From: Phorcus lineatus
Lineage: Eukaryota; Mollusca; Gastropoda; Trochida; Trochidae
NCBI GenBank assembly: GCA_921293015.1
Contig: OV121096.1
Span: 12,155,000 to 12,218,999, forward strand
Length of the DNA stretch: 64,000 nucleotides
Direction: 5' to 3'
Part shown: piece by piece, positions 3,601-7,901 of the stretch
Layout of the letters: every line of letters begins with the position of its first letter
Numbering within the stretch: the stretch's first letter is position 1
Notes under the pieces: model-generated
What the model saw: only the letters and a program-made list of their open reading frames with translations
Told to the model about the DNA's origin: nothing
The model's database searches: none
Translations under genes and position numbers: made by a program

Positions 3601-5406
3601 AAACCTTTTTGATGCAGTCTCCCACTTGTTCTCCATGTGTTTTGACGTGGTTCACCCCCTCTTGAAATATTCCCATAGCAGTGTTAAACAATAACTCTCT
3701 CATTTGCAACCAGGAATGAAATGTAGGTAATAGAAACATAATGACACCCAAAATATGAGGAAGTTATCTCACAAAGGCGAGTACATCCAATGTCTGGAAA
3801 AGTTTTGTTTATGTCTTGTGACTTCAAATTAAACAAATGTCAGATTTTGCTTTACAGTTGTAACAACGTGTCATCGCTAGACTACTTTTAGTAGCTGCCC
3901 GCCACTCTGCATGAAAATGACTGTCTTTATGATATTATTGATGCAATCACTATTTGAAATATGAATTATTGTCTACACTGCTCATTGATGTGTTTATCAT
4001 TACTGCAGCATCATGGTAGGATCCACACCGTTCTGCTCCGGGGGGTGCAAGGCTATTGCTGACACCGGCACCTCCCTCCTGGCTGGACCTAGCGATGAAA
4101 TCACCAAGTTGAACCAGCAGATCGGGGCAACACCACTGGCCAAGGGAGAGGTAGGTGCTTTTGAATCTTCCATCTGATGCTATGTGTTATTCAATAGTGG
4201 CAAGCCTGAATCTAACATTGATACCATCAAATCAAACCACAGATTCTTACCAAAAGCAGTAATAACTGTAGAAGTCATAGTTAGTTATCAAACTGTGTAT
4301 ATCTTATTAATATGTTTTTTGTTAAAACAGAATCGTTTATCTCATTTCAAGTTTGTAGGATTTTGATTGTTATTCATTTGTCTTCCAAAGTGTCATTCCC
4401 AGGTGAAATGGAGAAACCATGCAGAATAGCTATGATTCATTATAAATTGATCTTTTATCAGGCACCCAGATTAAGAATCAGAGAAATTTGAATAAAAACA
4501 AGTTCAGAAGTAAACCTTTTGAGTGAATTATTATTGAGTTACCTGCCTTTGTTCCAGTACATGGTGGACTGCAGTAAGATTCCGAGCCTTCCCGATATCA
4601 CATTTTCCCTGGGCGGAAGTAAATTTACTCTCACTGGAAAACAATATGTCCTCACCGTAAGTATTTTGTCATAACCATTAGCCGTAGTTATAGCCTATGG
4701 AAATGAGCTCATTTGTTTAACTGTAACAGATGTTTGACTCATCCAATAGTTAATCATTGAAAAGCTTTAGACCAAGGTTGAGAAGGTTGACTATAAGAAA
4801 CCTAATTTTCAAATCATATATATATCTATTGTTCATTTGCATTTGTTTATATTTTCCTATGAAGAGAAGTGGGTTTTTTTGGACGGAGGCAAAACGAAAT
4901 AATGATAATTCTGATTTTTCAGGAAATTAAAACACCATTCCTTTTAGAACTCTTAACTAAGCCAATACCTTGAAATATTTTTTTCCTTTTCTCAAGATTG
5001 AATAGGCCTCAAATCATTTGTCAAAATCTCTGGAACTCAAAACCTTATGCTGATGACTTTTAGACATATGTCTAAACAAATCTTAGGAAAAGAGGAATTC
5101 TTCTTGAAAATTTATACTCAATGTTTAAGTAACTTAAAACTGGTATGAAGCTTGTGATCTGATGAGCTAATGACATTCTCTGTCAAAGGTATATTACAGT
5201 TTCGGTTAGTAATCAGATTTTTCCGTTGTTTTCCCCCACAGGTATCGATGCTCAACGTATCGATATGCCTGAGCGGTTTTATTGGTCTTGACGTTCCACC
5301 CCCACGTGGCCCTCTCTGGATCTTAGGCGATGTTTTCATTGGTCCATTTTATACCGAGTTTGATATGTATAAGAATCGTGTTGGCTTTGCCTTGACTAAA
5401 AATTAA
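690..5406 (+). CDS. CTSD-like: Cathepsin D-like aspartic protease (5'-partial, isoform a)
   Basis: Lysosomal aspartic endopeptidase of the pepsin A1 family. Exons read 690-813, 1273-1391, 2116-2315, 3090-3212, 4009-4150, 4558-4656 and 5242-5406. All junctions are GT-AG and all phases join, giving 323 residues plus stop. Visible motifs are the first catalytic [11 protein letters not shown] (exon 1), the flap IQYGTG (exon 2), FDGILGLGY (exon 3), an NFT glycosylation sequon (exon 4), the second catalytic [12 protein letters not shown] (exon 5) and the proline loop [16 protein letters not shown] (last exon). The paired cysteines of CSITDIAC and GGCKA match cathepsin D. Signal peptide and propeptide are missing because of the window edge. 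An AATAAA lies at 5475-5480. Family assignment is firm; symbol-level orthology is inferred from motif pattern only. Confidence 0.93.
3494..3662. repeat. Near-perfect foldback (hairpin MITE) in cathepsin D intron 4
   Basis: Arms of about 70 bp (3494-3564 and about 3592-3662) are almost perfectly inverted around a loop of roughly 27 bp. The outer ends read AGAGGGGGTG and CACCCCCTCT. The low arm divergence suggests a recent insertion or gene conversion between arms. It sits entirely inside the intron between exons 3090-3212 and 4009-4150. Confidence 0.85.
3663..3705 (+). repeat. Short interspersed motif, copy 1
   Basis: GAAATATT-CCC followed by GTTAAACAATAA and a CTCTC/CACTC-rich end. It matches a motif at 6519-6560. 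Such GAAATATTG...GTTAAACAA strings are common in molluscan interspersed repeats as I recall them, so this may be a SINE or LINE tail. Confidence 0.4.
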
Positions 5407-5474
5407 AAATACTCTGACATGATATTGCTTTATTCTAATGCATAAAAGATAACTCTGATACATGTTTTGGTCAC

Positions 5475-5480
5475 AATAAA
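5475..5480 (+). promoter_or_regulatory. Polyadenylation signal, isoform a
   Basis: AATAAA about 70 bases after the isoform a stop, followed by T- and GT-rich sequence, as expected for a cleavage site. Confidence 0.7.
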
Positions 5481-7736
5481 GTATCAGCATATTTTGTAAC
5501 AAAGATTTTATTTGTGAGTTGTTCAAGTTAACAAAACTTCAATGATTTAAAGCGGGTTTTTAATTTATAAATTTTGCATATAAATTATTTGTAAGAAATG
5601 TTTGGAAAGAAAGAATAATTTTCAAACAAATTCAAAATCTGAACATTAGAAAACACTCCAAATTTAAATTTTAGGAATTAGCTTGGCATTAGAATCCGAA
5701 TAAAACCAATTAAAAATGAACACGTTAAGTATCATTTATGAGTTTTTGTTTTGAAATATTCATAACCAGAAATCTCTAAACAATGATACTCTTAAATATT
5801 TGGTATTGTTGAATTATACTATCAACAAATGTCACATCATTAAAACATCTTTAGGTCTGCAAAACATTCAAAGGTTTGACACCCACAAGTGTTGCTGCGT
5901 ATCTTATCATTTGTATGCATGTCTGCTTTTCATCTTTCTCATTTACACATTAGTAATTTCAGCATTAACAAAAAGCATGGTCGTTATTTGATAAGCTTTT
6001 CTTTTCTTGCCTCATTTCCTTAACCTCTCATTCTTCATGTAAACCTTTCTATCTTTTTCAGCCATCGTTTAGCTGCATTTAGTTGCTATGTATTGCTTCA
6101 TCTTGTTTCTGTTGGTGAATTTCTATCTTCGCTTGCAGAGATTATTGTGCATTTTAATCTTGTTAAAGATTGGTTTTCTTGTCTTTCAGCACTAATATCT
6201 TGCTTTTGCATGAGACAGACATTTGTAATACGTAATCATGATCTTCTGCACAGTTTTCTTTATCCATTGCATGACGTTGCAAACCTTGAATGAAATATAT
6301 ATATGCATAAACTATTTCTGCAGTTCTGAATAAAAACTGAAATTTGATTTTGAAGGCTTCAAAAACACTCACATATACAAATATCTGTCTTGTGCTTATT
6401 TGTGGCTTATGAAACTAGTTCACCTAGGTGCTTATTAGAAGTAGTTTGAGGCCTACAGGTCCAGAGAGGTGGCGAGGGTACAGAAAGTCATTCCAGTTTT
6501 CTTCACGCTGAATGGGTGAAATATTGCCCAAGCGGAGTTAAACAATAAGCCAGTCACTCTAGTTATTTTCCATTGTGATACTAAATACTTAACCTTTTAC
6601 CTTTTGATATAAACTGATTGATAACAACTTTGGATTTGAATTAACAGGAAATTCAAATAGATCAATGAGTAAGAATAATTTGACCTTCTTTAATGAGGTC
6701 AATTTAATGGACTTTTAGGAAATTTGATTTTTTACCCGCGGAAACAGTAGGCTACAGTTGCCCTTCAAGCTAAAGGGATTTTCTTTCCATTGAACTGTCA
6801 CTTCTTTTTTGCTTAATAGACTGGCCTGATACTAATACATATCCTACATATATCTATACATTCATCTGAAACAAATTCATATGTATATACTTCACATCTT
6901 GTATTTAGTGTTTCCTAACTTGCACCAAACAGTATGCAGGGTGATTAAGTTCGTTTTTCCTGTCAATGTGGAATTGGTTCAGCAATAAATCTATGCATAT
7001 TGAACTCGGCTTGTGATGAACAACTATAATAGCTTCTGCAATTCAGTAGTTTAAAACTTTAGTTGACTAGTATAAACAAGTCATATGGACCCGAATCCCG
7101 TTTCCCAGGTCAACATAAAAATTAATTCTCAAACTGTACACACACAAAAATTATGAAACTTAAAAATAGATGTAAGTTTCCCTTGGCTCCGTATTTTTGC
7201 TAATCATTCTGTTCAAAGTGGTAAGGCGTTCCTATTGTTTTAATAAATTAGAACCAATGAATTTGCTAATGGACTACTGTCCAGTGTCTTGTTTAAGCTT
7301 CATTTCCATATCTAAGCTTTCTCAATTTTGAGGAATTAGGACTAGTGATTGTTGCGGAGACTCTATCTAACCTTTTATTACTCGCCTGTTGAAAACACTC
7401 AAGTTTTTTATCTATAAATCACTTTGTATTTGACTTCATACAGAATGTCAAGATGGAAATCACTATGGTACTTGACCTAGTTTGGTTTATGAAAATGACA
7501 ACCCATTCCAAGATAAGTTGATATGGCGAGCAATAAACAAAATATATTTACTAATGTTGCTCTTGTGATATACTGTCTTCATAACACTTGTAAATGATTT
7601 TGTATCAAACTTTTATTTACTCTGATACCTTATCTTTTACTTGTTAAACCAAAACGGTATTACACATGAGCTAGTGTAGCATCCTGTCCTGTCTATGGCT
7701 TGGTCTATCATGTTTGGTGTCTGTCTGTCTGTCCAG
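5481..7736 (+). other. Region between the two alternative cathepsin D last exons
   Basis: AT-rich sequence with short open frames only and no recognisable protein. It serves as 3' flank for isoform a and as intron for isoform b. Apart from the SINE-like fragment at 6415-6565 I see no structured feature. Confidence 0.5.
6415..6565 (+). repeat. Putative SINE-like fragment containing the interspersed motif
   Basis: The 3' part (6519-6560) shares the GAAATATTGCCC...GTTAAACAATAA motif with 3663-3705. The 5' part is GC-richer than its surroundings. No clear A and B boxes or target duplication were found. It lies in the intron between the two alternative last exons. Confidence 0.35.
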
Positions 7737-7901
7737 GTGTCAAACCGCGGAGAAACTATATGTCTAAGTGGATTCACGGGTCTGGATGTTCCCCCACCTC
7801 GGGGACCACTGTGGATCCTTGGGGACGTCTTCATTGGTCCCAAATACACAGAGTTTGATTTGGGGAACAACAGGGTTGGTTTCGCTGAAGCTAAACAATA
7901 A
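7737..7901 (+). CDS. CTSD-like: Alternative last exon of the cathepsin D gene (isoform b)
   Basis: This is a second complete terminal exon, 165 nt with stop, exactly the length and phase of 5242-5406. It is preceded by a pyrimidine-rich CTGTCTGTCTGTCCAG acceptor and followed by AATAAA at 8022-8027. Its 54 residues match the other terminal exon at 41 positions. The changes cluster at the start (residues 3-7) and near the C-terminus. In the invariant stretch from GLDVPPP to FIGP, 14 of 21 codons differ synonymously, which points to selection on both copies. This version ends VGFAEAK, closer to the usual cathepsin D end than the VGFALTK of the upstream exon. Splicing from the donor at 4657 would give the second isoform. 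It could instead be a relic, but there is no disabling change. Confidence 0.85.

What the first reader, a model, noticed from the sequence alone, without database searches (positions are those of the whole stretch)
5242..7901. Cathepsin D gene with two complete, phase-matched last exons
Two terminal exons of identical length (165 nt) and phase, each with an acceptor, a stop and an AATAAA, encode alternative 54-residue C-termini. In the invariant core 14 of 21 codons differ only synonymously, so both have been under protein-level selection for a long time. Differences concentrate at the exon start (the upstream version gains an N-V-S sequon and loses a charged stretch) and at the C-terminus. 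The two isoforms could differ in glycosylation, trafficking or stability. I know of no standard description of cathepsin D last-exon duplication.
Basis: partly seen in the sequence, partly recalled or inferred. Interest (0 to 1): 0.75.

Follow-up and report, generated by a model that had tools for sequence, protein, structure and literature searches.

The report
Cathepsin D with duplicated last exon
The one gene found for the lysosomal protease cathepsin D in a marine top shell's genome carries two old, complete and long-constrained versions of its last exon, so it can probably make two enzymes with different tails; similar last-exon duplications are known in other genes, including one from an oyster.

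Summary
The window lies in a 957.8 Mb genome matching Phorcus lineatus (thick topshell). The gene encodes a complete prepro-cathepsin D of nine exons per transcript (387 aa in either form); exons 1-2 lie upstream of the window. After shared exon 8 (4558-4656) come two in-phase 165-nt last exons, 9A (5242-5406) and 9B (7737-7901), each with an AG acceptor, TAA stop and AATAAA. Of 54 sense codons 13 are identical, 28 differ synonymously and 13 change the residue. Synonymous sites are saturated and pairwise omega is about 0.016; neutral evolution of both copies, or of one, is strongly rejected. Flanks do not align, so the duplication is old. A genome search found no third copy. 9B is the family-like form by a small margin; 9A swaps a turn Gly for an N-V-S sequon but keeps the core. 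Best reading: a tandemly duplicated, mutually exclusive alternative last exon giving two folded isoforms. Expression, glycosylation and conservation in relatives could not be tested. Oyster alternative oxidase exon 10 is a close mollusc precedent, so this is a new member of a known kind, in a gene for which seven literature searches listed no such report.

The parts
690..813 (+). Cathepsin D exon 3 (start of mature enzyme, first catalytic DTGSS). Exons 1 (L009:4855-4910) and 2 (L009:6122-6257) lie upstream of the window.
   Evidence: AG/GT boundaries, frame and protein match
1273..1391 (+). Cathepsin D exon 4
2116..2315 (+). Cathepsin D exon 5
3090..3212 (+). Cathepsin D exon 6
4009..4150 (+). 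Cathepsin D exon 7 (second catalytic DTGTS)
4558..4656 (+). Cathepsin D exon 8, last shared exon, donor GTAAGT
5242..5406 (+). Alternative last exon 9A: 54 aa + TAA, N-V-S sequon, acceptor with long pyrimidine tract
5475..5480 (+). Candidate poly(A) signal AATAAA of 9A, followed by a GT/T-rich stretch
   Evidence: motif alone is weak evidence
7737..7901 (+). Alternative last exon 9B: 54 aa + TAA, slightly more family-like form
8022..8027 (+). Candidate poly(A) signal AATAAA of 9B
   Evidence: motif alone is weak evidence

Best explanation
An old tandem duplication copied the last exon of this cathepsin D gene. Exon 8 is now spliced either to 9A, ending at the poly(A) site near 5475, or to 9B, ending near 8022. 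A transcript that uses 9A and its poly(A) site is cleaved before 9B, so the choice is mutually exclusive by construction. Each mRNA encodes a complete 387-residue preproenzyme with the same catalytic motifs and the same cysteines (8 in the preproprotein), differing at 13 residues, mainly a surface hairpin (residues 3-7 of the exon) and the outer C-terminal part. 9B most likely serves the general lysosomal role and 9A a tissue- or condition-specific one. Shown: two intact exons at one locus, long purifying selection. Inferred: use of both exons, poly(A) sites, division of labour. Speculative: N-glycosylation at the 9A sequon.
For: 13 identical, 28 synonymous, 13 replacement of 54 codons. Pairwise codon ML omega 0.016; omega 1 rejected and omega 0.5, about the case of one drifting copy, rejected. 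0 of 20,000 neutral runs reach the observed identity. Pfam Asp 42.6 bits for 9A and 47.4 for 9B, cut-off 19.9. The 323-residue protein without signal and propeptide matches PDB cathepsin D 5ux4 about equally with either end (433.8 with 9A, 438.3 with 9B). Core stretches shared with 5ux4 ([23 protein letters not shown]) are kept in both. The genome search with 9A found two matches, 9A and 9B (2 of 2 candidates scored); exons 3-8 occur once each in the 84 kb searched. GC3 of 9A and 9B is alike, 0.43 and 0.44. Precedent: oyster AOX exon 10, both variants expressed (PMC5589949).
Against: No transcript evidence. No related species could be examined, so recent decay of 9A is not excluded. Among the 13 differing residues, 9B alone matches at least one of four relatives at five and 9A alone at two (36, 42); 9A loses the turn Gly that 3 of 4 relatives have. 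AATAAA is common in this AT-rich window.
Confidence: 0.8

Rival explanations
1. 9A is a once-functional alternative exon now relaxed or unused: a recent exon relic that still looks constrained because its decay began lately.
For: 9B alone matches a relative at residues 5, 7, 14, 43 and 52, 9A alone only at 36 and 42 (four relatives); 9A has a slightly lower Pfam score (42.6 against 47.4). In oyster AOX the upstream copy is likewise the faster one.
Against: Frame, stop, acceptor and core motifs intact; 9A is the family-like copy at residues 36 and 42; GC3 close to 9B; only 16% of simulated neutral copies stayed free of stops at 55 substitutions, fewer at more.
Confidence: 0.12
2. 9A is the remnant of a tandem duplication of the whole gene, or was copied from another aspartic protease gene, rather than a duplicated exon.
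For: Such events are common in protease families (general knowledge).
Against: Exons 3-8 each occur once in the window plus 20 kb upstream (exons 1-2 were not in that query). The genome search with 9A finds only 9A and 9B. Of the 8 Pfam Asp matches in the genome 7 are exons of this gene; the eighth, on C41, reads as a beta-secretase-like fragment by recalled motif, not a cathepsin D. Such counts are lower bounds by the tool's own note.
Confidence: 0.04
3. Assembly error or haplotype duplication placed two alleles of one exon in series.
For: The published assembly needed removal of 83 haplotypic duplications (PMC10444997, passages).
Against: Synonymous sites are saturated and flanks do not align, far beyond allelic divergence.
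Confidence: 0.01

Closest known systems
Oyster (Crassostrea virginica and C. gigas) alternative oxidase duplicated exon 10, PMC5589949 (abstract and passages)
   Same: Mollusc gene with a tandem duplication of the terminal coding exon, same coding length, own stop codons; the downstream copy more conserved, the upstream copy more diverged (the copies differ at 15 of 41 residues in C. virginica, 13 of 54 here).
   Different: There the upstream form is described as including both exons in one mRNA by an alternative 3' splice site, and both forms are shown to be expressed, the upstream one dominant under air exposure. Here 2.3 kb and a candidate poly(A) signal separate the copies, and expression is untested.
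Mutually exclusive terminal exons or 3' variable regions of Drosophila pip and PGRP-LC (PMC9013439, passages)
   Same: Tandem terminal exons used one at a time.
   Different: Other genes; pip is given among examples in UTRs with eight clusters; RNA structures are implicated in PGRP-LC, while only weak inverted repeats (75-88% complementary) were found here, which I do not interpret.
Cathepsin D (peptidase family A1)
   Same: Match over 320-321 of 323 mature residues to PDB cathepsin D, both catalytic motifs, signal peptide and propeptide.
   Different: Two alternative ninth exons.

Membership tests
Cathepsin D / A1 aspartic protease | Sequence match over the whole mature enzyme | tested here: met
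   Pfam PF00026 over cut-off for 4 of 4 exons scanned; best PDB match is cathepsin D, residues 1-320 or 1-321 of 323
Cathepsin D / A1 aspartic protease | Two catalytic motifs DTGS and DTGT | tested here: met
   DTGSSNLW and DTGTSLLA in the spliced translation
Cathepsin D / A1 aspartic protease | Signal peptide and activation propeptide | tested here: met
   Exons 1-2 read MKTFIFCLALVASCYG and RIPLYKIKTARQTLKEHG, judged by inspection, no predictor run
Cathepsin D / A1 aspartic protease | Lysosomal location, acid protease activity | not testable with these tools
   -
Tandemly duplicated alternative last exon | Two homologous, in-phase terminal exons each with acceptor and stop | tested here: met
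Tandemly duplicated alternative last exon | Both copies under protein-level constraint | tested here: met
   (averaged over time; recent relaxation not excluded)
Tandemly duplicated alternative last exon | Own poly(A) site for each | tested here: inconclusive
   AATAAA 69 and 121 nt after the stops, but the motif is frequent
Tandemly duplicated alternative last exon | Both spliced in mRNA | not testable with these tools
   no RNA data held; published reads ERR10377999 (muscle) exist per PMC10444997

The most novel reading that the evidence does not exclude
One top-shell cathepsin D gene makes two enzymes by choice of last exon: a lysosomal form (9B) and a form (9A) with an extra N-glycan on the hairpin before the last disulfide cysteine, sent to another place such as digestive or secretory granules. 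The variety that a sea slug has through many cathepsin D-like genes would here be reached through splicing.
Probability: 0.15. Interest if true: 0.6.

Novelty: new member of a known kind. Interest (0 to 1): 0.42.

Why it matters
Here the exchanged piece is a 54-residue part of the folded catalytic domain, not just a tail or UTR. If both forms are made, they are a natural paired experiment on what this part of cathepsin D does. It would also be another mollusc case, beside oyster AOX, of terminal-exon duplication as an alternative to gene duplication.

Tried and rejected
Searched for relatives of 9A in the bacterial and archaeal genomes: 124 pattern matches, no relative. Searched viral contigs with 9B: 21 pattern matches, one hit, L014, which on reading is a short stretch ([10 protein letters not shown]) in an ORF that looks to me like a metallophosphoesterase, a chance match. 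Neither collection is one of animals, so these say nothing on conservation.

Looked for homologous flanks: the only significant blastn piece between 4657-5650 and 5651-8500 lies inside the exons (E 1e-13); the next has E 0.1. Looked for long-range pairing that could steer exon choice: eight imperfect inverted repeats, none tested further and none convincing in AT-rich DNA. GC3 does not separate 9A from 9B, though both are below the rest of the gene (0.43, 0.44 against 0.64). Acceptor strength was only counted as pyrimidines (14 against 12 of 17; the six other window exons 10-15), too crude to rank.

My first exon borders were off by one to two bases for several exons and did not give one open frame; the corrected ones are.

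The dS of 10.9 is not a usable number; it means saturation only.

Full report
Source. The window sits at C37:12155000-12218999 of a 957,807,699-base assembly in 74 contigs. Its COX1 lies on a 19,115-base contig. Of the mitochondrial genes only COX1 was found by a family search; the others I recognised by eye from the translations: cox3-nad3-nad2-cox1-cox2-atp6 on one strand, nad1-nad6-cob-nad4L-nad4-nad5 on the other, the order I recall for vetigastropod snails. The thick topshell Phorcus lineatus has a 957.8 Mb assembly and a 19.1 kb mitochondrial genome (PMC10444997, passages). The paper gives 78 scaffolds against 74 contigs here. I take the organism to be P. lineatus; this is an inference from sizes and gene order.

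Gene. Joining exons by their AG/GT borders gives one open frame from a signal peptide (exon 1, L009:4855-4910) through the propeptide (exon 2, L009:6122-6257) and exons 3-8 in the window (690-813, 1273-1391, 2116-2315, 3090-3212, 4009-4150, 4558-4656), then 9A or 9B: 387 residues in either case. For the 323 residues without signal and propeptide the best PDB match is cathepsin D 5ux4 with either end (433.8 bits with 9A, 438.3 with 9B). Four of four exons scanned (5, 8, 9A, 9B) match Pfam Asp above its cut-off.

The two last exons. 9A (5242-5406) and 9B (7737-7901) are both 165 nt, phase 0, AG before and TAA at the end. Of 54 sense codons 13 are identical, 28 differ synonymously and 13 change the residue: 3, 4, 5, 6, 7, 14, 36, 42, 43, 44, 51, 52, 54.

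Selection. A pairwise codon model gives omega 0.016 with saturated synonymous sites; omega 1 is worse by 61 in 2*delta lnL and omega 0.5, about what one freely drifting copy would give, by 38. In simulations with 55 neutral substitutions on one copy, 0 of 20,000 kept 41 of 54 residues (maximum 39), and 16% stayed free of stops. So both exons were constrained for most of the time since duplication. These tests average over time and cannot exclude a recent change.

Origin. Flanking sequence does not align; the only significant DNA match lies within the exons. A genome search with 9A finds 9A and 9B only, and exons 3-8 occur once each in the 84 kb examined (exons 1-2 were not in that query). This fits duplication of the exon alone, long ago.

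Which is the original form. Compared with the four relatives whose alignments I used (5ux4, 1lya, 9hk2, 1qdm), identities are 35, 34, 33, 30 for 9A and 38, 37, 33, 31 for 9B. At the 13 differing residues 9B alone matches a relative at five, 9A alone at two (36, 42), both at one (44), neither at five. 9B keeps the turn Gly at residue 5 (3 of 4 relatives), while at residue 36 9A has F where relatives have Y or F and 9B has K. So 9B is closer by a little, and 9A is not simply a decayed copy. Four relatives out of about 100 PDB hits is a small sample.

What the change could do. The replaced residues form a surface turn just before a conserved Cys and the outer C-terminal part; the placing on the fold is from recalled cathepsin D structure, not from a model made here. 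9A gains N-V-S (residue 338 of the preproprotein) beside three sequons shared by both forms. Glycan use, sorting and stability are untested.

Mechanism. If exon 8 joins 9A and the poly(A) site near 5475 is used, the transcript ends before 9B; otherwise 9B is used. AATAAA is present after both stops but is common here (172 in the window, 142 expected). 9A has 14 pyrimidines of 17 before its AG, 9B has 12. What steers the choice is unknown.

Known parallels. Oyster alternative oxidase has a duplicated terminal exon 10; the downstream copy is the conserved one, both variants are expressed, and the upstream form becomes dominant under air exposure (PMC5589949, abstract and passages). Mutually exclusive terminal exons are also described for fly pip, and competing RNA structures for PGRP-LC (PMC9013439, passages). 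Of ten searches of the open-access library, seven named cathepsin D, two concerned terminal or duplicated exons and one the organism. 'Cathepsin D' with 'exon duplication' gave 0 papers and with 'alternative last exon' 1, unrelated by its listing. No listing showed a report for cathepsin D, but lists were cut (20 of 36 shown; 10 of 92), I saw listings rather than the papers, and subscription journals and preprints are not covered. In a sea slug, 203 cathepsin D-like genes are reported against four to five in other heterobranchs (PMC8079154, passages), a different route to variety.

Verdict. A real, old, constrained duplication of the cathepsin D last exon; new for the gene as far as searched, known in kind.

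Noticed in passing
5242-5406: CpG observed/expected of exon 9A is 1.18 (9 CpG), against 0.38-0.75 for exons 3-8 and 0.61 for 9B. Small numbers, but it could mean lower germline methylation of 9A.
   Followed up: partly
3494-3662: A near-perfect inverted repeat (71-nt arms, 97% complementary, 27-nt loop) in intron 6, like a small foldback element.
   Followed up: no
57844-61188: Satellite-like array, period 198, about 17 copies, 93% matches; another of period 43 with 29 copies at 15223-16470.
   Followed up: no
L009 about 8600-9957: In intron 2, upstream of the window, overlapping reading frames repeat the same peptide motif many times, which suggests a minisatellite; no repeat finder was run there.
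   Followed up: no
L012 about 6350-9150 (mitochondrial contig C74): About 2.8 kb of almost pure TA repeat in the mitochondrial contig, which would account for much of its 19.1 kb length.
   Followed up: no
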